Source: Phaeobacter sp. J2-8 (GTDB lineage Bacteria > Pseudomonadota > Alphaproteobacteria > Rhodobacterales > Rhodobacteraceae). Taken from it: 64,000 nucleotides of DNA. The stretch covers positions 1 to 64,000 of the forward strand of contig NZ_JALIEC010000011.1 of NCBI RefSeq assembly GCF_022867865.1, read 5' to 3'. A program made the translations under genes and the position numbers. Of this stretch, positions 28,792 through 64,000 are shown in pieces. Position 1 is the stretch's first letter. The number at the start of each line of letters is the position of its first letter. The notes under the pieces were generated by a model. It was not told the DNA's origin and made no database searches. It worked only from the letters and a program-made list of their open reading frames with translations.

Positions 28792-28835
28792 ATATCTGTT
28801 AAGCTTTGCAAAACAATAAAGACTTGAGGGCAGTG

Positions 28836-30017: not shown

Positions 30018-30936
30018 GGTCTTCGGAGATTCTCTCAAGAACGCGATGGGCAATGCTGCAACGCCGGACGAAGATGCGGATCTCGATCTGAAGCGCACAA
30101 GCCCAACTGTCGCTCGAGCGCAAGCATCCGTGCTGGAAGAAGACAAACACGCCACGCGCCTGATCGACCCGAGCACCGTGCGGATGTCCGCGGTCATGGA
30201 TCGTATCGATCCGAGCGATGGCCTCGAGGAACTTGTCTCCTCGATCCGGGAACATGGGCAAAAGGTTCCCATTCTCGTCCGCCGAACCCAAGATGGCGCA
30301 CTTGAGATCGTCTATGGGCGCCGTCGTCTTCTCGCCTGTCGTGAGCTTGGTCAGAAGGTGCGTGCGACGGTCATGGAGATGACCGAAGAGGAAGCTCTGA
30401 TCGCACAAGGCGTGGAGAACAATGCCCGCCAAGACCCCTCGTTTATCGAAAGGGCCTTGTTCGTCGCCGGGATCATTCGAGAACTTGGGAAAACCGACGA
30501 GACGCGCAAGAACGCTCAAACGATCGCGTATCGGGCACTTCAGATCGATAAATCGCTCGTCTCGCGAATGAACCGTATTGCGACCGGCATCCCGATGGAA
30601 CTGATCCAGGCTATCGGACCCGCACACGGCGTGGGTCGACGGGTTTGGGAAAAGCTCTTCAGGCTGTGCGAGAAGGACGTTGCGAGAGCCAAAGAAGCTG
30701 CCCACGAAATCCCCCACACCTTGCCAGGCCCAGACCGACTTGACGCAGCAATTACGCTGCTCACGTCCACCAAGGCACCTACACCCAAGGTTGAGCAAGG
30801 TGAGCGCGTGAAGATCGGCCGCAAAGGCAACCGCATCACTATCGATGTGGACGCTGATCTTGCCCCGCGCGTTGAGGAAGCCGTCCGAAAGCTGATCAGC
30901 GAGCTTCTTGACCGCGGTCAAGACGGCCCAGAGTGA
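30007..30936 (+). CDS. repB: plasmid partitioning protein RepB (ParB family)
   Basis: 309 aa from MARKVFGDSLKNAM (ATG 30007, GGGGGCGTAGCC before it). ParB N-terminal motifs are present: EELVSSIREHGQKVPILVRR, the GRRRLLACRELG (box II-like) segment, and ENNARQDPSFIERALF. The HTH follows (YRALQIDKSLVSRMNRIATGIP). RepB binds parS centromeres and works with RepA. One candidate parS lies inside its last codons and another directly downstream. Part of the repABC operon. Confidence 0.95.
   Translation: MARKVFGDSLKNAMGNAATPDEDADLDLKRTSPTVARAQASVLEEDKHATRLIDPSTVRMSAVMDRIDPSDGLEELVSSIREHGQKVPILVRRTQDGALEIVYGRRRLLACRELGQKVRATVMEMTEEEALIAQGVENNARQDPSFIERALFVAGIIRELGKTDETRKNAQTIAYRALQIDKSLVSRMNRIATGIPMELIQAIGPAHGVGRRVWEKLFRLCEKDVARAKEAAHEIPHTLPGPDRLDAAITLLTSTKAPTPKVEQGERVKIGRKGNRITIDVDADLAPRVEEAVRKLISELLDRGQDGPE
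30906..30923. repeat. candidate parS site 1 (within repB 3' end)
   Basis: An 18-bp perfect palindrome with core CTTGACCGCGGTCAAG. The same core recurs at 30945-30966 and 32267-32286 and was not noticed elsewhere in the window. The position around repB/repC is where repABC replicons keep RepB-binding centromeres. Confidence 0.75.
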
Positions 30937-30944
30937 CGACCCCG

Positions 30945-30966
30945 TGTCTTGACCGCGGTCAAGACA
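30945..30966. repeat. candidate parS site 2 (repB-repC intergenic)
   Basis: The longest copy: a 22-bp perfect palindrome extending the CTTGACCGCGGTCAAG core by three bases each side. It lies 8 bp after the repB stop, and 39 bp from site 1 start-to-start, so two RepB dimers could bind side by side. Confidence 0.75.
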
Positions 30967-31004
30967 TCAAGAGCAACGAGCAGAAAACGAAAGGAGGACC
31001 GGCT

Positions 31005-31044
31005 AGAAAAAGAAAGACCCCCCGAAAGCGGTGCTTCCGAAGGG
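31005..31044 (-). terminator. rho-independent terminator of the ctRNA
   Basis: On the minus strand arms 31044-31033 and 31029-31018 pair over 12 positions (three G-T wobbles) around a 3-nt loop, followed by TCTTTCTTTTTCT (31017-31005). On the plus strand no T tract follows, so it acts on the minus strand. Confidence 0.75.
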
Positions 31045-31061
31045 CCTCAATCAGTCTCGAC
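31005..31061 (-). ncRNA. counter-transcribed RNA (ctRNA/incA) of the repABC replicon
   Basis: Between repB and repC the minus strand has a promoter (31068-31096) and, about 20-55 nt downstream, a G/C-rich hairpin followed by a T-rich tract, giving a predicted transcript of about 57 nt. repABC plasmids encode such an antisense RNA here; it binds the repC leader and lowers RepC synthesis, setting copy number and incompatibility. Ends are inferred from the promoter and terminator. The class is well established; this copy is read from sequence only. Confidence 0.75.
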
Positions 31062-31067
31062 ACCTGA

Positions 31068-31096
31068 TTGATACCCCCAAAACGAATTCATTTCAA
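31068..31096 (-). promoter_or_regulatory. ctRNA promoter
   Basis: Minus strand TTGAAA (31096-31091), 17-bp spacer, TATCAA (31073-31068): a good sigma-70 promoter with optimal spacing. Predicted start near 31061. Confidence 0.7.
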
Positions 31097-31139
31097 CACC
31101 GCTCGCGGTGAACGGTGAAGCTTTTTCTTCCGAAACACC

Positions 31140-32264
31140 ATGAGACATGCACCTGAAACAACAACCGCCCTGGCGGAACGAACATCTTTGCCCTGCCCTA
31201 ATCCCTATCAGTTTCTGGGTCCGGTTCGCATTCTGAGGAGGGAGCTAGGTCTCACAACCAATGACCTCGCCGTTCTGACCGCGCTCATTAGCTTCCTGCC
31301 CCGCAAAGAACGTGAGATTCAGGACAGCCAGCGACTTACGCTCACTGTCGTGTTCCCATCGAACGCTTCTCTATCAGAGCGCGCCAATGGACTCGATGAG
31401 AGAACACTTCGACGCAGCTTGGGACGCCTCTCAGCTGCGGGACTGATCGAACGCAAGAACTCAGCAAATGGCAAACGCTTTCCGCTGCGGTATGGAGGCG
31501 TTATCAGAGATGCCTTCGGTATCGACCTGGAACCCTTGATCCAGAGGTACGGCTCGCTCGAAACACAAGCCTTGCAGCTCACCGAAGAACGCGAACGCTT
31601 GCGCTCGCTGAAGGCTGAGGCGTTGGCCCTACGTGCTTCGCTACTCCAACAGACACGCTTCGATGAAACAAAGCTCTCTACCCTCAACATGATCAGAAAT
31701 GTCCTGCGCCGAGCGACATTAACCGTTGATACAGTTCTGAGCGTTATCTCGGAACTGAGAGCCCTTGGAGCCAATACCGACGCAAACTACGGTGAACAGC
31801 ATGCGACGGCAAAAGCTGGTATCGAAGAAAATTTCGAAGCTGTCGAACACCGGCCTCATACACCTGATTCCAACGATCTGCCCGCCACAAACGGACAAAG
31901 TGTCCGGCACATAGAGTCTATAAAAAAAGATATTAAAGAGATTGCTCCCTCTACGGTCAATCGCGGCGAACAAACCAAATCCACCATGAACCGAGACCCA
32001 GCACGTATGGCGTGGGAAGATTTCACCCATGTTGCAGGATTTTTCCCAGAGCCACCGCGCACAGGAGAAGCCCTTACCCGCATTCTATACGACCTCGGTC
32101 GATTGCTTAGAATAAGCCAAGAAGAACTGCGACGTGGCATCCAGAAAGCTGGCGCAGGAAAACTGCTTCTCGTCTTCGACTACCTGATAGCAAGAGCCGA
32201 CACCATCAAACACCCTGACGCCTATTTCGAAAGGATCGTACGCACACACCTTGCTCCGACATGA
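31140..32264 (+). CDS. repC: replication initiator RepC
   Basis: 374 aa, close to the usual RepC length of about 400. N-terminal domain: LGPVRILRRELGLTTNDLAVLTALISFLP and VVFPSNASLSERANGLDERTLRRSLGRLSAAGLIERKNSANGKRFPLR, the RepC winged-HTH block. C-terminal domain: ARMAWEDFTHVAGFFP..ELRRGIQKAGAGKLLLVFDYLIARADTIKHPDAYF. It starts replication and, in known repABC plasmids, the origin is inside repC; an AT-rich stretch at about 31915-31955 is a candidate. A dyad upstream (CACCG-CTCG-CGGTG, about 31097-31110) and the ctRNA probably control translation; no strong ribosome site precedes the ATG. Confidence 0.95.
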   Translation: MRHAPETTTALAERTSLPCPNPYQFLGPVRILRRELGLTTNDLAVLTALISFLPRKEREIQDSQRLTLTVVFPSNASLSERANGLDERTLRRSLGRLSAAGLIERKNSANGKRFPLRYGGVIRDAFGIDLEPLIQRYGSLETQALQLTEERERLRSLKAEALALRASLLQQTRFDETKLSTLNMIRNVLRRATLTVDTVLSVISELRALGANTDANYGEQHATAKAGIEENFEAVEHRPHTPDSNDLPATNGQSVRHIESIKKDIKEIAPSTVNRGEQTKSTMNRDPARMAWEDFTHVAGFFPEPPRTGEALTRILYDLGRLLRISQEELRRGIQKAGAGKLLLVFDYLIARADTIKHPDAYFERIVRTHLAPT

Positions 32265-49094: not shown

Positions 49095-52000
49095 ATGACC
49101 CATCTCGCCCCTTTCGCGTCCGAGCGCGCACTTGCGCCTGTTGTCCCCATCCCGTCCCGCAATACGGCCGTCGCGGTCTTGAGCGTGGCCGAGGCGCTGC
49201 AGCCTGATCTGGCGCAAGGGTTTCAGATCGACGCGCTGCGTCTGCGCGCTGAAATGGAGCGCGCCTTCGGCGGCTCCGATGCAGAGGGCGCATGGGATTG
49301 GAAGCTGGCCTATGAGGCGGGCGAGGCAGCGCTGGTCCTGTTCCTGCGGAAGTTCGGCCGCGCGCTCTTGGCCCGGACCGGCTCGCCCACTGCGCTGCTG
49401 CCGATCCTTGCCAAGGTGGCGGGCCTCTTGCCGACCCATACGCGGCGGTCGGAGGAGATGGAGCGCTTCCAGCAATTCTCGACGCCGCTCCCCATGGGGC
49501 TGGCGGCACTGGCTGCCGCACAGATCACTGCGCACGATCTGGTGCTGGAGCCATCGGCTGGGACAGGCCTTCTGGCGGTCCTCGCAGAAATCGCGGGCGG
49601 CAGCCTCGCGCTGAACGAGCTTGCCGACACCCGCGCTGATCTCCTCCGTCGCTTGTTTCCGGGCCGGCCTGTCACGGGCTTTGACGCAGCCCAGATCGAC
49701 GATCATCTGGACGCAGGGTTGCGCCCGAGCGTGATCCTGATGAACCCGCCGTTCTCGGCGGTGGCCAATGTCGATGCCCGCAGCACCGAGGCGACAGCGC
49801 GGCATCTGCGCTCTGCGCTCGCGCGCCTGGTCCTCGGCGGACGGCTGGTCGCCATCACCGGTGCCAGTTTCGCGCCCGATTCCCCGGCTTGGGCCGAAAC
49901 CTTTGGCCGCCTGACCGAGACCGCCCATCTGGTCTTTACAGGTGCCATATCCGGTGCCGCGTTTGTCAAACATGGCACCAGCTTCGAGACGCGGATTTCG
50001 GTCTTCGACAAATGCCGCGGCGGTGAGCCGGGCGGCATTACAGCAGATCTGGCGCGCCCGATATCGCCTGATGTGGCCAGCCTGCTGTCGCTGATCACCA
50101 CTCACGTCCCGCCGCGCCTCGCGTTTGAGCAGGCTGATCCAACAGGGCAGGGCCCCTCTTCCTCCTTCCCGGGAAATCCCGTCCGCACCGTGCGCACGGC
50201 CGTCAGCACATCGCGCAACAAGCCCGCAACACCCGCCACCAACACCGCCGCGCAGATCGATGCCGCGGACCTCGCCTACACCCTGCGAGATGCTACTGAG
50301 GACGGCGTCAGCGCGTGCCTGTCGGATGCCATTTATGAAACCTTCCGTCTGCAGGCGATCGACATCCCCGAGGCGGAACCGCACCCGACCAAGCTGGTGC
50401 AATCGGCTGCGATGGCCTCAGTCGCGCCTCCGAAACCTTCCTACCGCCCCAAACTGCCGCCAGCCGTCAAGTGCTGTGGCCTGCTCTCTGACGCACAGCT
50501 TGAGACCGTGATCTACGCCGGTGAGGCACATGGCGCATTTCTCGCGGGGTCTTGGACCGTCAATGAAACCGGCGACATGGTCTCCGCTGCGCCCGACGAT
50601 GCTGCGGACGCCGTCAGCTTCCGCCGTGGCTTCTTCCTTGGCGATGGCACCGGTGCGGGCAAGGGCCGCCAGTCAGCCGGGATCCTGCTCGACAACTGGG
50701 CGCAGGGTCGGCGCAAGGCGCTCTGGATTTCCAAGAGCGACAAGCTTCTCGAGGACGCTCAGCGCGACTGGTCGGCGCTTGGCCAGGAGCGGCTGCTGGT
50801 CACGCCGCTGTCGCGTTTTGCACAAGGCCGCGACATCCCGCTCTCCGAGGGCATCCTGTTCACCACCTACGCTACGCTGCGCTCGGAAGAGCGCGGGGCC
50901 AAAAAGTCCCGCGTCGACCAGATCGTGGACTGGCTTGGGGCGGATTTCGACGGAGTGATTTTGTTCGATGAAAGCCATGCCATGGCGAATGCTGCCGGGG
51001 GCAAAGGCGAGCGGGGCGATACCATGGCCTCGCAGCAGGGCAGGGCGGGTCTGCGTCTGCAGCACAAACTTCCGAATGCCCGCGTGGTCTATGTCTCGGC
51101 CACCGGCGCGACCTCGGTTCATAACCTCGCCTATGCGCAGCGCCTTGGTCTCTGGGGCGGGGAAGACTTTCCCTTCGCCACCCGGGCAGAATTCGTCGAG
51201 GCGATCGAGGCAGGTGGCGTGGCAGCGATGGAGGTCCTCGCCCGCGACCTGCGGTCCCTTGGCCTCTACACCGCCCGGTCGCTCTCCTATGACGGCGTCG
51301 AGTACGAAATGCTGGAACATGCGCTGACCCCCGAGCAGCGCGGCATCTACGACGCCTACGCCGGGGCCTTCGCCATCATCCACAACAACCTCGCCGCTGC
51401 GATGGAGGCCGCCAACATCACGGGGGATGCTGGCACGCTGAACCGGCAGGCCAAGTCCGCCGCGCGCTCGGCTTTTGAGTCCGCCAAGCAGCGCTTCTTC
51501 GGCCATCTGCTGACGTCGATGAAAACCCCCACGCTTATCGCGAGCATTGAGGCCGATCTGGGGGGGGCCATGCCGCAGTCATCCAGATCGTCTCCACCGG
51601 CGAGGCGCTGATGGAACGTCGCTTGTCGGAGATCCCGACCGACGAGTGGAACGACATCCGCGTCGATATCACCCCGCGCGAATACGTCATGGACTACCTC
51701 ACCCATTCTTTCCCGGTGCAGCTCTATGAGCCTTTCACTGACAGCGAGGGCAATCTCTCGTCCCGGCCTGTCACGCGCGACGGCCAACCAGTAGAATGTC
51801 GAGAGGCCGCCCGCAGGCGCGACGCGCTGATCGAAAAGCTGGCATCACTGCCGCCCGTGCCGGGGGCGCTCGACCAGATCGTCCAGCGCTTCGGCACCGA
51901 TCTCGTGGCCGAAGTCACGGGTCGGTCGCGGCGCATCGTGCGGAAGGGCGAGGGCCCTGCAGCGCGGCTTGTCGTCGAAAGCCGGGCGGGCTCTGCCAAC

Positions 52001-53473
52001 CTCGCGGAAACCGCCGCCTTCATGGATGACCAGAAGCGCATCCTGATCTTCTCGGATGCCGGCGGCACGGGGCGCAGCTATCACGCCGATCTCGGGGCGA
52101 AGAACCAGCGCCTGCGTGTCCATTATCTCCTCGAGCCGGGCTGGAAGGCCGATGCTGCCATCCAAGGCCTTGGCCGCACCAACCGCACCAATCAGGCGCA
52201 ACCGCCGCTGTTTCGGCCAGTGGCCACGGACGTGAAGGCGGAAAAGCGGTTCCTGTCGACTATCGCGCGCCGTCTCGACACGCTGGGTGCCATCACGCGG
52301 GGTCAGCGCCAGACCGGCGGGCAGGGGCTGTTCCGGCCCGAGGACAACCTCGAAAGCCCCTATGCCCGCGACGCCCTGCGCCAACTCTACCGCCGCATCT
52401 ATCGCGGCGATGTGGCGGGCTGTTCACTCGGGGCGTTCGAGGATGCGACCGGCCTCAGTCTGACCGACGACAACGGGCTGAAAGATGACCTGCCGCCGAT
52501 CACAACCTTCCTCAATCGTCTGCTTGCGCTGACGATCGACATGCAGGCCGTGCTCTTCTCGGCCTTCGAGGAACTTCTCGATCAGCGGATCGAGGGTGCC
52601 ATCGCCGCCGGGGTCTACGACCTCGGGCTCGAGACGCTGCGCGCCGAGAGTTTCCGCGTCAACTACGCCCGCGTCATCTACACCCATCCCGGCTCTGGCG
52701 CAGAAACTCAGCTCCTGACCATCGCGGAAAAGCGGCGCAACACACCGACCGCGCTCGCGGACGCGCTGGACTGGCTCGATGATCCGAAGGCGCGGCTGCT
52801 GGTCAACAGCCGATCTGGCCGGGCGGCGGTGCAGGTGCCCGCCACCAGCCTGATGCTGGATGACGGCACCATCGAACCCCGCTTGCGGCTGATCCGCCCG
52901 ACGGAGGCAAGCACCGTGCCTGCTAAGATCATGGAAGACACCCATTGGCTGGAGGCAGATCGGGCGGCCTTCGCTGCCGCCTGGACTGCGGAACTCTCCG
53001 AGGTGCCGGAGTTCTCGGAGGCCACGCTGCACATCGTCGCGGGCCTTCTGCTGCCGATCTGGAAGCAACTGCCGCAGGATGAGACCCGCGTCTACCGGCT
53101 GCAAACCGATGACGGCCAGCGGATCATCGGTCGCCGGGTCTCACCCGCCTGGGTCGCGACCACGCTGGCAGATGAGGCCCCAAGGCTTACGGCAGCGCAG
53201 GTGCATGCCCTCGTTCTGGAGGGCAAGACGGTGGTGCGGCTTGCCGAAGGGATGGAGTTGCACCGGTCCCGCGTCATGGGGGTGAACCGGATAGAACTGT
53301 CGGGCTTTTCCGAAGCCGCCAAGGACCGGCTCAAGGCAGATGGGTTCTTTTCGGAGATCATCGCCTGGAAGCTGCGGCTCTTCTGCCCAGCAGACTCGAG
53401 CGGCATCGCAGTGCTTGATCGTCTGCTTGCACGTTGTCCTGTGACGGGACTACATGCACGCGGAGGGTGTTGA
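49095..53473 (+). pseudogene. methyltransferase-strawberry notch helicase fusion, frameshifted in a G8 run
   Basis: About 1,460 codons. N-terminal N6-type methyltransferase domain: LEPSAGTGLLAVLAEIAGG (SAM loop, about residue 155) and VILMNPPFSAVAN (NPPF). Central SNF2-like helicase domain: FFLGDGTGAGKGRQSAG (Walker A), ILFDESHAMAN (DESH box) and VVYVSATGATSV. C-terminal helicase half: IFSDAGGTGRSYHADLGAKNQ and GLGRTNRTNQAQPP. One base is missing in the run of eight G at 51560-51567; the second frame continues GHAAVIQIVSTGEALMERRL to the stop at 53473. Domains on both sides are intact, so an assembly indel is likely. A conserved plasmid gene of unknown role. Confidence 0.88.
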
Positions 53474-54874: not shown

Positions 54875-55807
54875 ATGACGATCCACACCCACGACGACGC
54901 GTATGAACCCGCCCACACCGCATCCCAGACTGCCCATGCGCTCGACGAGCTGCAACTCTACGGCTTCCGCCCCTTTGATGAGCCCGATCCGCGCCCGATG
55001 CCCGATGGGCAGCGCCTCGCGGTCGCCGTCGCCGACATCTTCGATGCCCTCGTCGCGACCCTGGAAGACACCCGCATGGAACCCGATCTCGAAGAGGTGC
55101 TCTGGGGCCAGGTCAACCTCTTCCACCGCGCCACGGCCCGGGTCGAGCGGTCGCTCGATGAAAACGAGCAGGCGCAGCGCCGCCTCCAGCGCGAGCAGGA
55201 CGGCTCTGAGGTGAAATCCACCGAACTCGAGCGCCTGACGGCCGAAGGTCTGACGCTGATCGAACGGCGCAACTGCATGGACATGATGCGCGATCACGCC
55301 GCCACCGAGTTCGTCCATCACACGGGATCGACCTGGCGCCCCCGTACCGGCTCGATGGTGAACCGCCAGCACATGACCGCAGCGCTTATCGACAGCCGTG
55401 ACTTCCTGGCCGCCAGGCGCCGCGCGGAGACCGAGGTGATGCTCCCCGCTGGCCCCAAGGTCGCCCTCACCGGCGGCACCGACTTCAGCGATCACCGCCT
55501 GATCTGGGGCAAGCTCGACCAGGTTCGGACCAAGTATCCCGACATGGTCCTTCTGCATGGCGGAAGCCCGAAGGGCGCAGAGCTGATCGCCGCCAAATGG
55601 GCCGAGGCCCGGAGCGTGACGCAGGTGGCCTTCAAGCCTGACTGGACCAAGCATGCCAAGGCCGCCCCCTTCAAGCGCAACGACGCGATGCTCGAGGTGC
55701 TGCCGGTGGGTGTTCTGGTCTTCCCGGGCACTGGCATCCAGGAAAACCTCGCCGACAAGGCCAAAAAGCTCGGCATCCCGGTCATGAAGTTCGAGAAGGG
55801 GGCGTGA
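54875..55807 (+). CDS. DUF2493 (SLOG/YspA-like) protein
   Basis: 310 aa from MTIHTHDDAYEPAHTASQ (ATG 54875 after GGAGGCAAGAACCG). The N-terminal two thirds are helical. The C-terminal Rossmann-like DUF2493 domain reads PKVALTGGTDFSDHRLIWGKLDQV, VLLHGGSPKGAELIAAKWAEARSV and VLVFPGTGIQENLADKAKKLGIPV, with the GG and PGT loops of SLOG nucleotide-binding proteins. SLOG domains sense or process nucleotide ligands, some in conflict systems. It closes the helicase-Toprim block; function unknown. Confidence 0.87.
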   Translation: MTIHTHDDAYEPAHTASQTAHALDELQLYGFRPFDEPDPRPMPDGQRLAVAVADIFDALVATLEDTRMEPDLEEVLWGQVNLFHRATARVERSLDENEQAQRRLQREQDGSEVKSTELERLTAEGLTLIERRNCMDMMRDHAATEFVHHTGSTWRPRTGSMVNRQHMTAALIDSRDFLAARRRAETEVMLPAGPKVALTGGTDFSDHRLIWGKLDQVRTKYPDMVLLHGGSPKGAELIAAKWAEARSVTQVAFKPDWTKHAKAAPFKRNDAMLEVLPVGVLVFPGTGIQENLADKAKKLGIPVMKFEKGA

Positions 55808-55891
55808 GCCCCCGACTTCAATCCGGGACAGAACATTGTGGAAACGTCAAAGAGCGCTTGATATTGTGGTCTCGAGAGAGGCATCAACAAC

Positions 55892-56158
55892 ATGTTCGAC
55901 ACATCGCAGCAAATGGAAGTGTTCCCGACGACGGTCGATCTCAAGCGGATCGACCCGTCTCTCAACATGCGGCGCTTCTATCGAATGAGCGTTCAGCCGG
56001 ACCTGTTTGGCGGCGCATGCCTCGTGCGGGAATGGGGCCGTATCGGGTTTCGAGGGCAGATGCTAATCGAACGGCACCCGGACGAGGGGCATGCTGTGAC
56101 CGCCCTATTGAAGCTCGCAGCGACGAAGCATCGCCGAGGATACTTACGTTCTAGCTAG
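55892..56158 (+). CDS. WGR-domain protein
   Basis: 88 aa, almost only the domain: LNMRRFYRMSVQPDLFGGACLVREWGRIGFRGQMLIERHPDEGHAVTALLKLAATKHRRGY, with the name-giving WGR (REWGRIG). WGR domains bind nucleic acid ends in PARP1 and occur alone on plasmids. It follows the DUF2493 gene by about 80 bp and is the last gene before the BREX locus. Role unknown. Confidence 0.88.
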   Translation: MFDTSQQMEVFPTTVDLKRIDPSLNMRRFYRMSVQPDLFGGACLVREWGRIGFRGQMLIERHPDEGHAVTALLKLAATKHRRGYLRSS

Positions 56159-56300
56159 CTGATCTTTTGGGCTCTGATAGTCCAAGACCAGTCCCTGGGG
56201 TATCGACGCCTGAATGGTCGACTTCCACGGCAACGCCTTGAAATTCGATTGATAATCTCGGTGTCACTCCCTAAGGTTGTCGCAGGCCCAGAAAATGGGC

Positions 56301-56319
56301 GCGCATAGTTACAATGCGC
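56301..56319. promoter_or_regulatory. candidate operator of the BREX regulator
   Basis: GCGCAT and ATGCGC are perfect inverted arms 7 bp apart, about 25-40 bp before the WYL-regulator start; AATGCGCATT (56313-56322) is itself palindromic. BrxR-type regulators are known to bind inverted repeats upstream of their own gene. Binding here is inferred. Confidence 0.4.
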
Positions 56320-56341
56320 ATTGGGATACCGGGAGGCCAGG

Positions 56342-57238
56342 GTGGATAGCGACAGGTCAGAACTTCGATGGGGAGTCGAGCAACGTCTCGAGTTCATAGA
56401 GTTCCGCTTGTTCTGGGAGGGGCATGTAAACCGGAGTGACCTCATGGATCAGTTCGGTGTCTCGGTCAACCAAGCGTCCACTGACCTAAATCGCTACATC
56501 GGCTTTGCTCCGGCGAACATGGTCTACGACAAGAGTGCGCGGACTTATGTGCGAGGCAGTGCTTTCCAACCACAATTTCTGGAACCTGATGCCAGTCGCT
56601 ATCTAGCTCAGCTACGGTCCGTGGCCGAAAACATTCTTGACCGTGAAGACTCTTGGATCGCTAATCTTCCGTCCTTTGCCTCTGCGCCGACGCCGGTCCG
56701 TGGGGTTGACCCCGTGACGCTTCGGTCCGTTGTGGGAGCGATCAGGCGATCCGAAGAGGTCGAGATCCGATACCAGTCCCTTTCCAGCCCAGATCCGCGA
56801 TGGCGGTGGATTGCGCCTCACGCGATTGCCTTCGATGGATTTCGCTGGCACGCCCGCGCGTTTTGTCTAACCGACGAGTGTTTCAAGGATTTCCTTCTTT
56901 CCCGGATGATTGAGATTCGTGGCTCACGCGAAAGCGGGACATCGGCCGATGATGATCTCGACTGGAATTCAGAAGTCGTCCTTGAAGTGGCTCCTCATCC
57001 CGAACTGTCAGAAACGCAGGCTAAGGTCATTGCCCTCGACTACGGGATGCGTGGCGGCAGCGCGAAGATAAAGGTGCGCCGCGCGCTGCTCTACTACGCG
57101 CTGAGGCGCTTGGGATTGGATACAGATCCCGCCGCCCGGCGCCCGCAAGACCAACAGATTGTCCTTATGAACGCCCCCGAAATCGGGCACTCGACACCGA
57201 GGGTCTCGGCGCCTGTGAGCGGAGGCGTAAACGGATGA
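56342..57238 (+). CDS. brxR: WYL-domain transcriptional regulator (BrxR-like)
   Basis: 298 aa from GTG 56342 (GGGAGGCCAGG before it; a TTG 7 codons upstream is also in frame). The N-terminal winged HTH is LEFIEFRLFWEGHVNRSDLMDQFGVSVNQASTDLNRYIG. The WYL domain has VEIRYQSLSSPDPRWRWIAPHAIAFDGFRWHARAFCLTDECFKDF, and a C-terminal extension follows. Size and layout match BrxR, the autorepressor that stands first in many BREX and other defence loci and responds to an unknown ligand. Its stop overlaps the next ATG as ATGA, so it is part of the operon. Confidence 0.87.
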   Translation: MDSDRSELRWGVEQRLEFIEFRLFWEGHVNRSDLMDQFGVSVNQASTDLNRYIGFAPANMVYDKSARTYVRGSAFQPQFLEPDASRYLAQLRSVAENILDREDSWIANLPSFASAPTPVRGVDPVTLRSVVGAIRRSEEVEIRYQSLSSPDPRWRWIAPHAIAFDGFRWHARAFCLTDECFKDFLLSRMIEIRGSRESGTSADDDLDWNSEVVLEVAPHPELSETQAKVIALDYGMRGGSAKIKVRRALLYYALRRLGLDTDPAARRPQDQQIVLMNAPEIGHSTPRVSAPVSGGVNG

Positions 57239-57693
57239 TCGAGGCACTTGAACGCGTTGTTGACGATCTTGCTGTGGTGAACAGCAAACTATTGCTGCTG
57301 ATTGGCGCGCCAAATTCCGGGAAAAGCGACTTGCTTCGCCAACTGGCTGGACACCGAAAGCTGCACATCCTCAACATTGGAGCTGCCCTCGGGCGAGAAC
57401 TGCTGACAATCCCGAGCCCCAGGAGACACCTTCAAGCAGCCGACCTTCTGAAAGGGTTGGCGGATGAGTTTTCGCGGGAAGGACTTCTCCTCATGGACAA
57501 TCTCGAACTCCTGTTCGATCAGGAGTTGAAGCTAAGTCCGCTCGATTTGCTCCGGCGGCACTCTCAGGCGCGGCGCGTTGTTGCCGCTTGGCCGGGGACG
57601 CTCATAGACAACAGGCTGTCGTATGCAACGACAGGGCATCCAGAATATCAGGACTACAGCTGTGATGGCGTGGTTCCGTTCAGAGTTAATTGA
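57235..57693 (+). CDS. brxF: BREX type 3 protein BrxF (small ATPase)
   Basis: 152 aa. P-loop LLLLIGAPNSGKSDLLRQLAG (about residues 20-40) and Walker-B-like EGLLLMDNLELLFDQ (about 82-96). Small size, P-loop and position directly before a BrxC-type ATPase match BrxF, found in BREX type 3. Its exact job in BREX is not known. Coupled to the regulator by ATGA. Confidence 0.85.
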   Translation: MIEALERVVDDLAVVNSKLLLLIGAPNSGKSDLLRQLAGHRKLHILNIGAALGRELLTIPSPRRHLQAADLLKGLADEFSREGLLLMDNLELLFDQELKLSPLDLLRRHSQARRVVAAWPGTLIDNRLSYATTGHPEYQDYSCDGVVPFRVN

Positions 57694-57707
57694 AAGGAAA
57701 TCTCGAG

Positions 57708-60700
57708 ATGGCAATGCGTTACGGCGATCTCATTCAATTTGAGCCCATTGAATCGGTTATTCAGCTTCTCGATGCAGATCGTCCAGACGAAGCCAAGAAG
57801 CTTGTGTCCACCTATGTCATCTCGGATGACATGGCCGAACGCATTGCCAAGCTCATGATCCCGCAGCTCTCATTTGATGAGGCTGTGGACCACAAAGGCG
57901 TCTTGGTGGTCGGGAACTACGGCACTGGTAAGTCGCACTTGATGTCAGTGCTGTCACTTGTCGCCGAGGATGCGGCATATCTGCCGATGATCCAGCACCC
58001 CAAAGTGGCCGAGGCTGCAAAGACAATTGCGGGCCGCTTCAAAGTGCATCGGATTGAGATTTCGAGTCAGATGTCATTGCGCGACATCATCACCCAACAG
58101 CTTGAGGTGTTCCTAGAAAAGCACGGCGTGACATATGCGTTCCCGCCTGCCGACAAGGTCATCAATAACAAGGCTGCGTTCGAGGAGATGATGTCGGCTT
58201 TTGCGGAGGTCCACCCTGATCAAGGTGTTCTCCTCGTTGTCGATGAGTTTCTCGAGTACCTGCGGTCGCGCAAGGACCACGAACTTGTGCTCGACTTGTC
58301 CTTCCTCCGCGAGATCGGGGAGGTTACCAAACATCTCCGTTTCCGTTTCGTTGCAGGCGTTCAGGAAGCGATCTTCGATAGCAGCCGCTTTCAACATGTG
58401 GCGGATAGCCTGCGGAGGGTGAAGGACCGCTTCACTCAGGTCTTGCTGGCAAGACAAGATGTCAGTTTCGTTGTCGCGGAACGTCTCTTGAAGAAGTCCG
58501 CGGACCAGCAGGACAAGATCCGCGCTTACCTTGCACCATTCTCGAAATTCTATGGCTCAATGAATGAGCGGATGGACGAGTATGTGCGTTTGTTCCCAGT
58601 ACACCCAGACTACATCGGGACGTTTGAGCGCCTGGTTTTCACCGAGAAGCGGGGCGCGTTGGTGACCTTGCGTGATCAGATCCAGGCAATCCTTGACGAT
58701 GAAGTTCCTTCAGATCGGCCTGGTCTAATCGGCTTCGACAAGTTTTGGGACACTGTCGCAACAAACTCCGTCTTGCGCTCAGATCCGAATATCGGGCCAG
58801 TGCTCAAGGTCTCAGAAGTGCTTGCGGAGAGGGTCTCCAAGGCGTTCACTCGGCCGGCCTATAAGCCGATGGCGCTTCGCATCATTGACGGCCTTTCAGT
58901 CCACCGCCTGACGACGGGCGGGGACATCTATGTGCCGGTCGGACCGACGGCCGAGGAACTGCGCGACACGCTTTGCCTGTTTCAGCCGGGTATTGAAGAC
59001 ATGGGTGGCGACCCGTCTGACGACCTACTCACCGCGGTCCAGACCACGCTTCGAGAGACCCTCAAGACGGTAAACGGTCAGTTCATCTCCAAGGCGCCAG
59101 ACACCGAGCAATACTATCTCGACCTGAAAAAGGACGTCGACTACGACGCGCAAATCGAGAAGCGGGCCGAGGCTCTTTCGGAGGATGCGCTTGATCGTGC
59201 TTACTACGGCGCCATTCGCCAACTCATGGAGCGCACGGACGAGTCCAGTTACGTGACGGGACACCAGATTTGGCAATACCAGATCGAGTGGCAGGAACGT
59301 CGCGTCGAACGGATTGGCTATCTATTCTTTGGTGCGCCGAACGACCGGCCGACCGCTCAGCCAGAGCGGGATTTCTATTTGTACTTCATCCAGCCCTTTG
59401 ATCCCCCGCGTTTCCGTGATGAGCAGAAGCCCGACGAGGTCTTCTTCCGTCTGAAAGCACCAGACGAAACCATCAAGCGATTGCTGAGCTTCTACGCCGC
59501 CGCCCAGGAACTGGCCTCCACGGCAAGTGGTGGCGCGAAAGGCGTGTATCTCGACCGCGGTCGCGATGCGCTGCGCGAAATGAGCAAATGGCTGCAGGAA
59601 AAACAGCTGGAGGCATTCGAGGTCACGTTCCAAGGCAAGTCCAAGACACTTCGTGACTGGACCAAAGGTATTTCACTCAGGGATAAAGCGCGCTTGGGGC
59701 CGGACGAGCGCATCAACTTCCGCGACGTCGTCAACGTGATCGCGGGGATCGCGCTAAGCAGCCGGTTCGCCGATGTTTCGCCCGAATACCCAACATTCTC
59801 GGCGCTCGTGACGGAGTCCAACCGAAAGCAGCTCATTGGAAATGCGCTTCGTGCTCTCACGGGGAGCAACCGTACGAAAGACGCTGTGATCGTCCTGGAT
59901 GGCCTCGAAATGCTCGATGGTGATCGCATCGACCCCGTTCAATCTCGATACGCTCAGGAGGTTCTCGCGCGGCTGAAGGCCAAAGGTCATGGGCAAGTGC
60001 TTAACCGCAGTGAGTTGCTCGTTGGAAATGCGGATATCGAATATTTCAGCCCTGACAAGTACCGGCTCGAGACCGACCTATTGGTCACGGTGCTTGGGTC
60101 ACTGGTCTATTCCGGTGACATTGTCCTCGCGATTACCGGGGACAAAATTGACTCCGGCAAGATCGGGCTTCTCGCGGATCGTCCGCTCGATAAGTTGAAG
60201 CAGTTCAAGCATGTTGAAGCGCCGAAGGAGATCAACGTTGCCGTGCTCCGGTCACTCTTCGAGATGCTGGAGTTGCCGCCGGGTCTCGCGCAGCAAGCAA
60301 CTCAAGGCTCGGATGAACCGGTCAAGGCGCTTCAGGAGGAAGTCAGCAAGCTCACAAAACGTGTGCTTGCAGCCTCCACCGACATGGCAAACCGGCTTAG
60401 CTTTTGGGGCCAGCCTCTCCTGCGCGAGGAAGAAATCCGCGACTGGAGATCGAAGCTCGACGAGCTCAAGGCCTTCTCGGAAAGCCTGTCGCCCTACAAC
60501 ACGGTCGGCAAGCTCAAGAACCTGCGCATTGGGTCTGATGATATCGCAGCCCAGAAAAAGAACCTTGAGGTTCTGAACTCCGTGGAAGGACTCATCAGCC
60601 TGATCGGCGAACTTGGGAACACGGCAAGCTATCTTGGCCAGGCCGAGATGGTGCTGCCGTCTGACCACGCATGGGTGAAGCAGGCTCAGGATACGCGCAA

Positions 60701-61439
60701 GCAGGTCCTCGACGCATTGTCGGCGAGCCGAACTGGACAGAATGGATCTGAACACCGGCAGACGCTCGCCAAGCTCAAAAAGGACTATGTGACGGCTTAT
60801 GTCAGCCTGCACAGCAAGGCGCGTCTAGGAGTGTCCGAGGACAAGACGAAGACCGCGCTGCGCAAAGACTCTCGGCTCGTCGCCATGCGGGCTTTGGCGA
60901 ATATCTCGCTGATGCCGACAAGCCAGCTCACCACGTTCGAGGAGAAGCTCGACAAGTTGAAGAGCTGTGCCTCGCTGATCGACTCCGAACTGGCGGCGAG
61001 CCCGGTTTGCCCGCACTGCAACTTCCGCCCGGCGAATGAGCAGGGCGACATGCTGCCCGCGGCCAATGTGCTCAAGCAACTCGATGACGAGCTTGATCAG
61101 CTGCTGGACGGGTGGGTGCAGACGCTTCTCGACAACCTCGAGGACCCGATCATCCAGTCCAACTTTGAACTTCTGAAGGAAGGGTCGCGCAAGATCGTCA
61201 CCGGCTTTGTCGACAGCAAGTCATTGCCCGATCCGGTCACGCCCGAGTTCATCAGTGCAGTGCAAGAGGCGCTGTCCGGCCTCGACAAGGTCGTCGTTTC
61301 GGGAAGCGACATTCGGCAGGCCTTGCTTCAGGGCGGATCGCCCGCGACACCCGAAGACCTGCGCAAGCGGTTCGAGGCGTTCCTGACCGACCGCTGCAAG
61401 GGCAAGGACACCACCAAGCTGCGCTTCGTGGTCGAGTGA
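57708..61439 (+). CDS. brxC: BREX type 3 ATPase BrxC (DUF6079 family)
   Basis: 1,243 aa from MAMRYGDLIQFEPIESVIQLLD (ATG 57708, GAAAGGAAATCTCGAG ahead). P-loop VLVVGNYGTGKSHLMSVLS near residue 70, Walker B GVLLVVDEFLEYLRSRKDHEL near 175, a long central part, coiled-coil segments (QSRYAQEVLARLKAKG; VKALQEEVSKLTKRV; RKQVLDALSASR), and a C-terminal CPHCNFRP near residue 1100. BrxC is the large AAA+-type protein common to BREX systems; this length and the DUF6079-type sequence are those of type 3. It works with the methyltransferase and PglZ to block phage replication. Confidence 0.88.
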   Translation: MAMRYGDLIQFEPIESVIQLLDADRPDEAKKLVSTYVISDDMAERIAKLMIPQLSFDEAVDHKGVLVVGNYGTGKSHLMSVLSLVAEDAAYLPMIQHPKVAEAAKTIAGRFKVHRIEISSQMSLRDIITQQLEVFLEKHGVTYAFPPADKVINNKAAFEEMMSAFAEVHPDQGVLLVVDEFLEYLRSRKDHELVLDLSFLREIGEVTKHLRFRFVAGVQEAIFDSSRFQHVADSLRRVKDRFTQVLLARQDVSFVVAERLLKKSADQQDKIRAYLAPFSKFYGSMNERMDEYVRLFPVHPDYIGTFERLVFTEKRGALVTLRDQIQAILDDEVPSDRPGLIGFDKFWDTVATNSVLRSDPNIGPVLKVSEVLAERVSKAFTRPAYKPMALRIIDGLSVHRLTTGGDIYVPVGPTAEELRDTLCLFQPGIEDMGGDPSDDLLTAVQTTLRETLKTVNGQFISKAPDTEQYYLDLKKDVDYDAQIEKRAEALSEDALDRAYYGAIRQLMERTDESSYVTGHQIWQYQIEWQERRVERIGYLFFGAPNDRPTAQPERDFYLYFIQPFDPPRFRDEQKPDEVFFRLKAPDETIKRLLSFYAAAQELASTASGGAKGVYLDRGRDALREMSKWLQEKQLEAFEVTFQGKSKTLRDWTKGISLRDKARLGPDERINFRDVVNVIAGIALSSRFADVSPEYPTFSALVTESNRKQLIGNALRALTGSNRTKDAVIVLDGLEMLDGDRIDPVQSRYAQEVLARLKAKGHGQVLNRSELLVGNADIEYFSPDKYRLETDLLVTVLGSLVYSGDIVLAITGDKIDSGKIGLLADRPLDKLKQFKHVEAPKEINVAVLRSLFEMLELPPGLAQQATQGSDEPVKALQEEVSKLTKRVLAASTDMANRLSFWGQPLLREEEIRDWRSKLDELKAFSESLSPYNTVGKLKNLRIGSDDIAAQKKNLEVLNSVEGLISLIGELGNTASYLGQAEMVLPSDHAWVKQAQDTRKQVLDALSASRTGQNGSEHRQTLAKLKKDYVTAYVSLHSKARLGVSEDKTKTALRKDSRLVAMRALANISLMPTSQLTTFEEKLDKLKSCASLIDSELAASPVCPHCNFRPANEQGDMLPAANVLKQLDDELDQLLDGWVQTLLDNLEDPIIQSNFELLKEGSRKIVTGFVDSKSLPDPVTPEFISAVQEALSGLDKVVVSGSDIRQALLQGGSPATPEDLRKRFEAFLTDRCKGKDTTKLRFVVE

Positions 61440-61474
61440 ACTTCCGCCAACCGATATTGAGATGAGACGAACCG

Positions 61475-64000
61475 ATGACTGAACAATTGAAGATGGGTGG
61501 CGGCAAGAACGACGGGCCGATCGAATGCCTGGGTATGACGTTCCCGAGCGATGACGCGCGCCGGGAGCACTTCTTGAAGCTCTTGGCCGAGAAGCTTAAA
61601 GAGCCTGAGTTCCGTGCGCGTGAGGGGTTTCCGAAGGGATCAGACGACGCAATCCTCGCGATGTCCGACCCGCCGTACTACACCGCTTGCCCCAATCCCT
61701 GGTTGACGGATTTTGTTGACCACCATGGGAAGCCCTATGATCCAGAGCGCGAGTACTCTCGCGAACCCATGGCAATTGACGTTTCGGTTGGAAAGACCGA
61801 CGCAATCTATAAGGCGCACTCCTACCATACCAAGGTGCCGCATCTGGCTATTGTGCCTTCGATCCTTCACTTCACCGAGCCAGGTGACATTGTGCTCGAC
61901 GGCTTTGCCGGATCAGGCATGACCGGTGTTGCGGCGCAGTGGTGCGGTACAGCACCGGCTGCATACCGTCATCAGCTAGAAATGGAATGGAAAAAGGCAG
62001 GTATGGCGGCGCCAAAGTGGGGCGCGCGTCGTGCTGTCCTAAACGATCTTTCCCCGGCGGCCACGTTTATCGGTGCCAATTATAACCTTCCGTTTGACGT
62101 CGACGGCTTCGCCAAGGCGGGCAAGCAGTTGCTCGCCGAAGTCGAGCGTGAAATCGGTTGGATGTATGAGACGCTTCATACCGATGGAAAGACAAAGGGC
62201 AGGATCGAATTCACGGTTTGGAGCCAACTCTACAGCTGTCCCGAATGCTCTGGTGAGATCAACTTTACCGAAGAGGCGCTGGATGAAGATACCAAACGTG
62301 TAAAAGACAGCTTTCCCTGTCCACATTGTGGAGCTGAGCTCAAGAAGGTAAAACTGGAGCGGCTACTTACAGCAAAGCTCGACCCGGCGACTGGAAAAAC
62401 GCTCGATGTTCCTAAGCGAGAACCTGCCTTAATCTCATACAGTATTGGGAAGACACGCTACGAGAAGCGACCGACTGCTGAAGATATAGCATTGCTAGAT
62501 CGCATCGAGGCTATGTCGCTTCCTCCAACGATGCCTACAATCGAAATTCCGCCCATGCATATGACACACGAGCGTGCGCGTATGGACTACTCTGGTGTAA
62601 CTCATATCCATCATTTTTTCCTTCCGCGTGCGGCTCAAGCGATGGGCTTGCTATGGGAAAAAGCGAGTGCCCATCCGAGTAGAAGAATACGCGCATTTCT
62701 TCTGTTCATGGTGGAGCAGTCGATTTGGGGCTTTTCAATCTTGAACCGATACAGTCCATCTCACTTCTCTCAGGTTAACCGTGCTCTCAATGGGGTTTAC
62801 TATGTTGCTTCTCAAACCTCTGAATGTAGTCCGCAGTATAATCTTGGCGGAAAACTAAACCGCCTAGTCAAAGCGTTTCAGACCTTCAGGGTCAAATCGA
62901 CTTTTGCTGCAGTTACGACTGGCACAGCCGCTAAGCTACCTTTGCCGGCCGCAAGCATCGACTATATCTTCACGGATCCGCCGTTTGGCGAGAATATCTA
63001 CTACGCGGATCTGAACTTCCTTGTGGAATCTTGGCATGGTGTCACAACAGATGCCGAGCCAGAGGCGATTATTGATCGCTTCAAAAAGAAGGCGTTGCCC
63101 GACTATCAACGTCTGATGCAGCAATGCTTTGCGGAATATAACCGTGTCCTCAAGCCGGGTCGCTGGATGACGGTGGTGTTCTCAAACAGCAAGGCCTCGG
63201 TCTGGAATGCCATCCAGGTTGCGCTTCAGCAGGCAGGTTTCGTCGTTGCAGAGGTGAATGCGCTCGACAAAGTCCAAGGCAGTTACCGTCAGGTGACATC
63301 CACAACCGCGGTAAAGCAGGACCTTGTCATTTCTGCATACAAACCGAATGGCGGTCTGGAGAAACGGCTCGCAGAACGAGGTGCCGCTCCCGACTCAGCA
63401 TGGGATTTCGTCGGAACCCACCTTCGTCAGTTGCCAGTTACCAAGGGTAAAGGCGGTTTGCTCGAGATGGTCGTGGAACGCGACCCGCGCCGGATCTACG
63501 ATCGCATGGTTGCGTGGTTTGTTCGCCATGATTATCCGGTCCCTCTGTCTACAGAGGAATTTCTGGACGGGCTGCGAAGCCGGTACCCCGAGCGCGACGG
63601 CATGGTCTTCTTGCCCGAGCAGGTGGCAGAGTATGACCGCAAACGTGCTCAAGCGGCTCAAGCTCCGCAGATGGAACTGTTCGTTTCGGATGAGCGCTCG
63701 GCGATCGACTGGCTGACCGATTTCCTGCGCAAGCGGCCTTCGACCTATCAAGAGGTGCATCCCGAATTCACGACCCAGGTCGGTGCCGGCTGGAAAAAGC
63801 ACGAAGAGAAGCCCGAGCTCTCTGCGTTGCTTGAAGACAACTTCCTGCGCTTCGACGGCAACGGCGACGTGCCGAGCCAGATCCACAGCTACCTCTCAAC
63901 CAATTTCAAGGATCTCCGGGGTCTTGAGAAGGAAGACCCGCGCCTGAAGGCAAAGGCGAAGGACCGCTGGTATGTGCCCGATCCGAACAAGGCGAAGGAT
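61475..64000 (+). CDS. pglXI: BREX type 3 adenine-specific DNA methyltransferase PglXI (Zn-ribbon, COG1743-like), 3' end outside window
   Basis: 842 codons from ATG 61475, open to the window end. N-terminal AMSDPPYYTACPNPW near residue 64, SAM-binding loop VLDGFAGSGMTGVAAQ near 141, a zinc ribbon CPEC...CPHC at about 254-284, and catalytic IFTDPPFGENIYYADLNFLVESW near 498. This order is that of DUF1156/COG1743 adenine methylases. In BREX the enzyme marks host DNA, which is then spared. The middle (about 62340-62960) is AT-richer with different codon use, possibly an exchanged recognition part. Helicase, PglZ and BrxA would be expected beyond the window. Confidence 0.88.
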   Translation, partial: MTEQLKMGGGKNDGPIECLGMTFPSDDARREHFLKLLAEKLKEPEFRAREGFPKGSDDAILAMSDPPYYTACPNPWLTDFVDHHGKPYDPEREYSREPMAIDVSVGKTDAIYKAHSYHTKVPHLAIVPSILHFTEPGDIVLDGFAGSGMTGVAAQWCGTAPAAYRHQLEMEWKKAGMAAPKWGARRAVLNDLSPAATFIGANYNLPFDVDGFAKAGKQLLAEVEREIGWMYETLHTDGKTKGRIEFTVWSQLYSCPECSGEINFTEEALDEDTKRVKDSFPCPHCGAELKKVKLERLLTAKLDPATGKTLDVPKREPALISYSIGKTRYEKRPTAEDIALLDRIEAMSLPPTMPTIEIPPMHMTHERARMDYSGVTHIHHFFLPRAAQAMGLLWEKASAHPSRRIRAFLLFMVEQSIWGFSILNRYSPSHFSQVNRALNGVYYVASQTSECSPQYNLGGKLNRLVKAFQTFRVKSTFAAVTTGTAAKLPLPAASIDYIFTDPPFGENIYYADLNFLVESWHGVTTDAEPEAIIDRFKKKALPDYQRLMQQCFAEYNRVLKPGRWMTVVFSNSKASVWNAIQVALQQAGFVVAEVNALDKVQGSYRQVTSTTAVKQDLVISAYKPNGGLEKRLAERGAAPDSAWDFVGTHLRQLPVTKGKGGLLEMVVERDPRRIYDRMVAWFVRHDYPVPLSTEEFLDGLRSRYPERDGMVFLPEQVAEYDRKRAQAAQAPQMELFVSDERSAIDWLTDFLRKRPSTYQEVHPEFTTQVGAGWKKHEEKPELSALLEDNFLRFDGNGDVPSQIHSYLSTNFKDLRGLEKEDPRLKAKAKDRWYVPDPNKAKD

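What the first reader, a model, noticed from the sequence alone, without database searches (positions are those of the whole stretch)
56301..64000. Start of a type 3 BREX phage-defence locus on a repABC replicon
Seen: WYL regulator, 152-aa P-loop protein, 1,243-aa DUF6079-like ATPase and a Zn-ribbon adenine methyltransferase, tightly packed and partly ATGA-coupled. Known: BREX type 3 is brxF-brxC-pglXI-brxHII-pglZ-brxA. Inference: brxHII, pglZ and brxA lie just right of the window. Plasmid carriage makes the defence transferable, and the BrxR-like gene is inside the operon, so it may control itself and the defence together.
Basis: partly seen in the sequence, partly recalled or inferred. Interest (0 to 1): 0.72.

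Follow-up and report, generated by a model that had tools for sequence, protein, structure and literature searches.

The report
Plasmid BREX-3 locus with swapped methyltransferase
This is a type 3 BREX phage-defence locus on a plasmid, with two of its genes broken in this assembly, and comparison with relatives shows that the part of its methyltransferase thought to read the DNA target is traded between otherwise matching loci, which could let such a defence change its target in one step.

Summary
Past the window edge the same contig carries brxHII, pglZ and brxA, so all six core genes of type 3 BREX are present in the canonical order, on a contig with repABC and conjugation genes.
(1) In this assembly brxHII has a frameshift and pglZ an in-frame TGA. 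Two close relatives have both genes intact. The locus is probably inactive here; sequencing error is not excluded.
(2) PglXI residues ~81-660 (methyltransferase with nested target-recognition insert) do not share the history of the rest of the operon. The nearest relatives are about 97% identical in DNA before and after the module, but the module is 45% identical in protein. In 41 operons its pairwise identity is unrelated to that of BrxC (rho 0.00), against 0.84 for PglZ and 0.65 for BrxHII.
The locus lies in a slot between WGR and Fic genes that holds different, mostly defence-type cargo in 9 related plasmids read. Promoter-like sequence and two inverted repeats precede the WYL gene.

The parts
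56249..56277 (+). Promoter-like pair TTGATA / TAAGGT, 17-base spacing, before the WYL gene
   Evidence: sequence; similar pairs seen by eye in aligned upstream regions of relatives
56286..56300 (+). Inverted repeat 1, 5-base arms (possible WYL operator)
   Evidence: 73 of 100 arm cells paired over 20 loci, 10-41 of 100 when slid by 1-3 columns
56301..56319 (+). Inverted repeat 2, 6-base arms (possible WYL operator)
   Evidence: 79 of 120 arm cells paired over 20 loci, 12-42 when slid
56321..57238 (+). WYL-domain regulator (likely start 56342)
   Evidence: PF13280 40 bits; PADLOC WYL 53.7 bits
57235..57693 (+). brxF, 152 aa
   Evidence: NF033453 173.5 bits, cut-off 50; PADLOC BrxF 130 bits
57690..61439 (+). 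brxC (DUF6079 ATPase), 1,243 aa from ATG 57708
   Evidence: PF19557 1991.7 bits; PADLOC BrxC 1794.6
61475..64000 (+). pglXI (brxXI) methyltransferase, 842 of 923 aa in the window; the gene ends at 64246 of the contig. After it, outside the window and in contig C3 numbering: brxHII in two frames (64243-65235, 65157-67055), pglZ with an in-frame stop (67052-67636, 67685-69076), brxA (69045-69761)
   Evidence: PADLOC PglXI 1231 bits for the part in the window; full ORF and following genes on the contig
61715..63454 (+). Exchanged module: PglXI residues 81-660, methyltransferase with nested insert (about 232-480)

Best explanation
A type 3 BREX defence operon (WYL-brxF-brxC-pglXI-brxHII-pglZ-brxA) lies as cargo in a variable slot, between WGR and Fic genes, of a repABC plasmid with conjugation genes, of a kind found in Rhodobacterales. 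In intact copies PglXI would methylate one DNA motif on the host, and the other BREX proteins would block unmethylated phage DNA carrying it (established for type 1; inferred for type 3). The WYL protein probably represses its own promoter, and so the operon, through two inverted repeats (inferred). The specificity part is modular: PglXI residues ~81-660 are exchanged between operons (shown by sequence comparison), probably by homologous recombination in the conserved flanks (inferred), so one event would change the methylated and the attacked motif together (inferred). The C-terminal ~60-200 residues tend to stay with the operon and probably tie PglXI to the other BREX proteins (inferred). 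In this assembly the copy is probably dead, because brxHII and pglZ are broken.
For: Gene content and order. Plasmid: and the conjugative MOBP / MPF_T typing of the 97% relative. Module exchange: this contig (C3) against L009 is 97.0% identical in DNA from 55720 to 61702, 46.9-63.0% in the six 300-base windows from 61700 to 63499, and 93.3-99.3% in the windows from 63800 on. BrxC of C3, L009 and L052 is 99.4-99.6% identical, yet their modules are 44.5, 45.1 and 52.8% identical. In 41 loci with all four proteins, rank correlation with BrxC identity: module 0.00 (Mantel p 0.44), PglX 721-920 0.59, PglX 861-920 0.73, BrxHII second piece 0.65, PglZ later part 0.84 (p 0.0005 each). In 66 loci, 17 of 18 pairs with BrxC at 97% or more have modules under 65%, and 23 pairs have modules at 80% or more at BrxC 71-98%, among them L081/L106 (BrxC 73%, module 97%). 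AU test against C3+L009+L052 as one clade in the module tree: p 1.3e-38; the BrxC tree groups them at 95% SH-aLRT. Tree splits shared with BrxC in the 41 loci: module 2 of 38, BrxHII 21, PglZ 20. Broken genes.
Against: No function was tested. The PglX segment 721-920 shares only 5 of 38 splits with the BrxC tree, and residues 14-76 are only weakly linked to BrxC (rho 0.15, p 0.017), so the borders are blurred and differ between pairs. The brxHII frameshift could be a sequencing error: it is a one-base length difference in a short run, and this contig has somewhat more split-like ORF pairs (9 in 106 kb, 8.5 per 100 kb) than the rest of the genome sampled (6.0). The slot was read in 14 of 23 matching plasmid records only, and its cargo is named by annotation.
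Confidence: 0.82

Rival explanations
1. The locus is intact and active in the living strain; the frameshift in brxHII and the stop in pglZ are assembly or sequencing errors.
For: The brxHII and Fic breaks are one-base length differences in short runs. Other genes on C3 also look split (strawberry notch, Fic, a sulfatase, a SulP-like transporter). C3 has 9 split-like overlaps in 106 kb (8.5 per 100 kb), above the 6.0 of the other contigs sampled. Assembly completeness is 95.5%.
Against: No general excess in the genome: 12 in 200 kb of C1 and 12 in 200 kb of other contigs (6.0 per 100 kb) against 20 in 340 kb of a genome of the same genus (5.9 per 100 kb); a count of in-frame-stop-like pairs was 8, 12 and 28. 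The pglZ stop differs from the codon of two relatives at two of three bases with no length change, which is not a run-length error. Some C3 overlaps are natural, as L009 has the same one at the relaxase.
Confidence: 0.35
2. The PglXI module evolves fast in place (arms race) rather than being exchanged.
For: Recognition domains are known to diverge quickly; the insert region is the least conserved part (40-residue window means 0.31-0.43 for windows within residues 261-500).
Against: Distant operons share near-identical modules (L081/L106 97% at BrxC 73%; C3/L090 82% at BrxC 80%), and the conserved catalytic parts change with the insert as one block. Fast evolution alone gives neither.
Confidence: 0.04
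3. Whole pglX genes, or pglX with its neighbours, are replaced rather than a module inside pglX.
For: Residues 14-76 correlate only weakly with BrxC (rho 0.15), and PglX 721-920 shares only 5 of 38 splits with BrxC.
Against: In the C3/L009/L052 trio both ends of pglX match (residues 14-60 91.5-95.7%, residues 800-923 98.4-100%) and only the middle differs.
Confidence: 0.15

Closest known systems
BREX type 3 operon of Leisingera thetidis plasmid pBMJM1_5 (NZ_CP109792.1, L009)
   Same: Same gene order, same slot beside Fic-MipZ-MobC-relaxase, 97% DNA identity over 87% of the query
   Different: PglXI module 44.5% identical; brxHII and pglZ annotated as full genes; an IS66 element lies between brxA and Fic
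BREX type 3 of Thioclava dalianensis DLFJ1-1 (L052)
   Same: BrxC 99.5% identical; full ORFs for WYL, brxC, pglX, brxHII, pglZ and brxA; brxF 98% identical over its length
   Different: A third PglXI module, 45.1% identical to this one
Type 3 BrxXI (PglXI) as described in PMC12839542 (abstract, section 25 part 1 and searched passages seen)
   Same: Methyltransferase with a large insert carrying four cysteines, and a C-terminal helical part
   Different: Word searches of that paper gave no 'recombin' and no 'exchange'; it proposes that the C-terminal HTH domains may add target specificity, whereas here the last part tends to follow the operon, not the insert
Type 1 BREX PglX/BrxX (PMC11341690, PMC11842806, PMC9009780; passages seen)
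   Same: PglX sets the motif for methylation and defence; the recognition domain is the most variable part; pglX diverges locally between E. coli and Salmonella loci
   Different: There the recognition domain follows the methyltransferase domain; here it is nested inside it, and the two move together
BrxR family WYL regulators (PMC9122601, passages seen)
   Same: WYL regulator at a BREX locus, with inverted repeats upstream
   Different: Whether this protein belongs to that family, and its repeats to the described boxes, was not tested

Membership tests
BREX type 3 | BrxF | tested here: met
   NF033453 173.5 bits against cut-off 50
BREX type 3 | BrxC of the DUF6079 kind | tested here: met
   PF19557 1991.7 bits over the whole length; it misses the cut-off of the general NCBIfam BrxC model (56.2 against 400)
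BREX type 3 | PglXI/BrxXI methyltransferase with nested four-cysteine insert | tested here: met
   PADLOC PglXI 1231 bits; cysteines 255, 258, 282, 285 invariant in 63 sequences; model of residues 1-842 with insert about 232-480
BREX type 3 | BrxHII helicase gene | tested here: met
   PADLOC model PDLC02500 (BrxHI|BrxHII, described as BrxHI) 493 + 877.5 bits in two pieces; the model described as BrxHII, PDLC02504, 100 + 153.5 bits; present but frameshifted
BREX type 3 | Type 3 PglZ gene | tested here: met
   NF033449 464.3 bits, cut-off 250, for the part after the stop and 196.8 bits for the part before it
BREX type 3 | BrxA gene | tested here: met
   PADLOC BrxA 206 bits; no NCBIfam hit
BREX type 3 | All core genes intact, as a working system would need | tested here: not met
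   brxHII frameshift and pglZ in-frame TGA in this assembly; this lowers 'it works', not the filing
BREX type 3 | Phage restriction and host methylation | not testable with these tools
   needs phage assays and a methylome
DUF499-centred BREX-related systems | DUF499 ATPase | tested here: not met
   the ATPase matches DUF6079; no DUF499 family among Pfam hits up to E 0.001
repABC replicon | repA, repB and repC in a row | tested here: met
   ParA-type AAA_31 at 28806-30017, ParB_N at 30004-30936, RP-C at 31140-32264
BrxR family | WYL protein that binds inverted repeats before its own promoter | tested here: inconclusive
   WYL domain and conserved repeats; binding not testable

The most novel reading that the evidence does not exclude
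BREX-3 specificity is a trading cassette: because the recognition domain is nested inside the methyltransferase fold, operons swap the whole methyltransferase core as one piece. The pool of cassettes is shared across alpha-, beta- and gammaproteobacteria, and the conserved C-terminal part of PglXI acts as the universal adaptor to the rest of BREX. The near-identical operons of this contig, Leisingera and Thioclava with three different cores are a natural swap experiment.
Probability: 0.6. Interest if true: 0.66.

Novelty: new member of a known kind. Interest (0 to 1): 0.5.

Why it matters
Where target recognition sits in type 3 BREX, and which part of PglXI talks to the other BREX proteins, has been proposed from structure prediction (PMC12839542) but, in what I saw, not tested. 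Operons about 97% identical outside the core but with different cores make both testable by module swaps and methylome sequencing. If the core is a cassette, BREX can change its self-mark and its target in one recombination step, which would bear on how phages and plasmids meet this defence. The plasmid slot shows one route by which it can spread.

Tried and rejected
General indel noise in the assembly as the cause of the breaks: no excess of split ORFs in 400 kb of other parts of this genome against 340 kb of a congener. The test is crude and does not clear this contig, whose own count is somewhat higher (8.5 against 6.0 per 100 kb).

Fast evolution in place as the cause of PglXI divergence: rejected because distant operons share near-identical modules.

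Pervasive breakage of pglX in relatives: 11 of 79 PglX hits looked short inside the locus, but in 8 of the 11 the contig ends inside pglX. Contig ends fall inside pglX in 9 of 24 cut loci, which hints at variable alleles but is weak.

Independent exchange of the recognition insert alone: the window-by-window matrix shows residues 81-660 as one block, without a clear separate insert block.

Fold search of the PglXI model against the PDB: 15 matches at E 0.001 or better, all weak matches of methyltransferase domains (best TTHA0409, E 1.9e-4; CcrM, 2.3e-4; TM-scores by query length 0.10-0.13). No help with the insert or the C-terminal part.

Contig circularity: the contig ends show no overlap at seven lengths from 15 to 127 bases, so a complete plasmid is not shown.

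PMC10164179 (passages) held nothing on variation of BREX genes.
Full report
What is there. The window is bases 1-64000 of contig C3 (106,394 bases) of the held assembly. Past the edge the contig continues with the rest of the pglXI gene, then brxHII, pglZ and brxA. All six core genes of type 3 BREX are therefore present in the order brxF-brxC-pglXI-brxHII-pglZ-brxA, with a WYL gene in front. The ATPase matches DUF6079 over its whole length (1991.7 bits), and no DUF499 family is among its Pfam hits.

Two genes are broken in this assembly; both lie past the window edge, and contig numbering is used. brxHII is in two pieces in different frames (64243-65235 and 65157-67055), with a one-base length difference to the relative near 65124. 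pglZ (67052-67636 and 67685-69076) has an in-frame TGA at 67634-67636, where L009 and L052 have a sense codon; L050 and L010 could not be aligned there. brxA follows at 69045-69761. Among the loci compared, brxHII is intact in 53, cut by the locus end in 4, and short inside the locus only in L060 (a 33% match) and here; pglZ, judged through its later part, is intact in 40, cut in 5, and short inside only in L111 and here. No second copy of either was found in the genome: the other hits of a full BrxHII query are weak (E 2e-7 or worse), and the later part of PglZ matched only this place. A crude split-ORF count shows no general excess in this genome (6.0 per 100 kb against 5.9 in a congener), though C3 itself is somewhat higher (8.5). 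I judge real decay more likely than error, but reads are needed. In type 1 systems PglX activity needs BrxB, BrxC and PglZ (PMC13326643, passages), so the locus is probably silent for both methylation and defence.

Where it sits. repA, repB and repC lie at 28806-32264, and relaxase, coupling protein, VirB11-type and VirB4-type genes lie to the right. The nearest plasmid is Leisingera thetidis pBMJM1_5, typed conjugative MOBP / MPF_T. Of 23 plasmid records that matched the region, I read stretches of 14. In 9 of the 14, the WGR gene (or its DNA) and the Fic gene (or its DNA) flank the cargo as they do here; for L011 the WGR side, and for L139 the Fic side, rest on DNA matches rather than annotation. 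With this contig that makes 10 slots. By annotation their cargo is BREX-3 (2), type I restriction-modification-like genes (2), restriction endonuclease with an ATP-binding protein (1), methyltransferase with helicase (1), N-6 methylase (1), RES/Xre pair with a restriction endonuclease (1), ThiF/multiubiquitin with macro/DUF4433 and HigA genes (1), and no defence-type gene (1, Ponticoccus). Of the other five, L010 carries BREX-3 next to WGR but only a short Fic-like DNA match on the other side, and L129, L133, L136 and L137 have Fic with no WGR in the stretch read. Nine records were not read. BREX-3 is sparse in the family: BrxC at 83% identity or more in 4 of 295 genomes including this one; six further weak hits had E values of 2e-4 or worse.

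The methyltransferase core has its own history. Against L009 the contig is 95.7-99.7% identical in DNA in the 300-base windows from 56300 to 61399 and 94.7-99.3% in those from 64100 on, but 46.9-63.0% in the six windows from 61700 to 63499 and 72.7% in the next. Protein identities for C3/L009, C3/L052 and L009/L052 are: BrxC 99.4, 99.5, 99.6; PglXI 14-60 93.6, 91.5, 95.7; PglXI 81-660 44.5, 45.1, 52.8; PglXI 800-923 100, 98.4, 98.4. The right-hand border differs between pairs (about residue 726 for C3/L009, about 776-800 for the pairs with L052). Three cores in three near-identical operons need at least two exchanges. The closest cores to this one lie in unlike operons, for example Roseospira (L065: BrxC 84.6%, core 85.7%) and Thauera (L090: BrxC 79.8%, core 82.1%), and in L010 (BrxC 95.0%, core 82.9%).

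Is this general? One scan of a genome collection with a BrxC alignment gave 80 loci (the best 80 of 156). With L009, L010 and this contig that is 83 sequences, of which 79 had a PglX hit; 66 with an open frame of 800-1150 residues were kept and 13 dropped. In the 41 with all four proteins (BrxHII by its second piece and PglZ by its later part, as they stand here), the rank correlation of pairwise identity with BrxC was 0.84 for PglZ, 0.65 for BrxHII, 0.73 for PglX 861-920, 0.59 for PglX 721-920, 0.15 for PglX 14-76 (p 0.017), and 0.00 for PglX 81-660 (Mantel p 0.44). All 14 windows of 40 residues inside 81-660 lay between -0.08 and 0.11; the lowest windows were 0.23 of 31 for BrxC, 0.17 of 17 for BrxHII and 0.44 of 11 for PglZ. 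Of 18 pairs with BrxC at 97% or more among the 66 loci, 17 have cores under 65% identical. Trees of the 41 (quick searches) agree: splits shared with BrxC are 21 of 38 for BrxHII, 20 for PglZ, 5 for PglX 721-920 and 2 for the core. The low number for PglX 721-920 means that the C-terminal part is not perfectly tied to the operon either. Holding C3, L009 and L052 together in the core tree of 66 is rejected (p-AU 1.3e-38; L009 has a long branch there). The loci were chosen by BrxC patterns, so the choice does not favour any PglX type.

How it probably works. The predicted structure covers residues 1-842, the part in the window (mean pLDDT 82, pTM 0.79; the window protein with 62 of the 63 copies located, L111 left out). 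It shows a methyltransferase fold with a long insert at about 232-480 and a mostly helical part from about 627 on, which is modelled with low confidence between about 730 and 780. This matches the published description of type 3 BrxXI, with a nested target-recognition insert carrying four cysteines and three HTH-like domains at the C-terminus (PMC12839542 section 25). Windows across 81-660 correlate with each other: as the insert is inside the catalytic fold, it is hard to replace without taking catalytic parts along. I infer that homologous recombination in the conserved stretches on both sides replaces the core as one cassette. By analogy with type 1, where PglX sets the motif for both methylation and defence (PMC11341690, passages), this would change the self-mark and the target at once. 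That the C-terminal end ties PglXI to the other BREX proteins is inference.

Regulation. A pair TTGATA/TAAGGT with 17-base spacing (56249-56277) and two adjacent inverted repeats (56286-56300, 56301-56319) precede the WYL gene. In 20 loci with a WYL protein at least 60% identical, this one included, 73 of 100 and 79 of 120 arm cells are paired, against at most 41 and 42 when slid, and some arm changes are matched on both sides. The repeats were defined on this contig, three of the 20 are near-identical, and the more distant loci fit poorly (1-3 pairs in several), so this leans towards the reading. It suits a self-repressing WYL protein like BrxR (PMC9122601, passages), but binding was not tested.

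What is new. The locus is a new, apparently broken, member of a known kind. The exchange of the PglXI core is the part I did not find in print: searches (listings), and word searches inside PMC12839542, PMC11341690, PMC11842806 and PMC9009780. PMC9009780 remarks on local divergence within pglX between two type 1 loci, and PMC11842806 finds the recognition domain the most variable part in type 1. Searches for the plasmid slot listed no paper that describes it in title or abstract start; none of those papers was opened. The library holds open-licence papers only, so earlier reports may exist. The class names alpha-, beta- and gammaproteobacteria are recalled; one search gives families.

Noticed in passing
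contig C3 78396-81897 (beyond the window): A second defence candidate between the conjugation genes: PD-Lambda-2 B (258.8 bits) and C (123 bits) with a weakly matching upstream gene (PDC-M63A, 28.7 bits) and an opposed cll-like gene (101 bits).
   Followed up: partly
contig C3 93868-101021 (beyond the window): Three large minus-strand genes: 97737-101021 matches MkoA/MkoC models (159 and 109 bits, best stretch near its C-terminus), 95175-97733 weakly matches a type II restriction-enzyme model (56 bits), 93868-95220 matched nothing in PADLOC.
   Followed up: no
window 49095-53473; contig C3 69797-70923; window 9901-11336; window 23810-25580: Other genes that look split on this contig: strawberry notch protein (one 1,459-aa ORF in L010), Fic, and, by ORF layout and recalled family only, a sulfatase and a SulP-like transporter. 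The coupling-protein gene differs by one base in length from L009 near 77952.
   Followed up: partly
L010 13781-15649: In Roseicitreum pRA04 a gene for an RNA-binding-domain protein is inserted between brxC and pglX.
   Followed up: no
L069 13772-17810; L123 19290-23737: pglX is interrupted by about 1.3 kb of other sequence in L069, and its match is in three pieces about 1.2-1.3 kb apart in L123.
   Followed up: no
loci with contig ends in the operon: Of 24 loci cut by a contig end within 10 kb after brxC, 9 are cut inside pglX, as if assemblers met several pglX alleles.
   Followed up: partly
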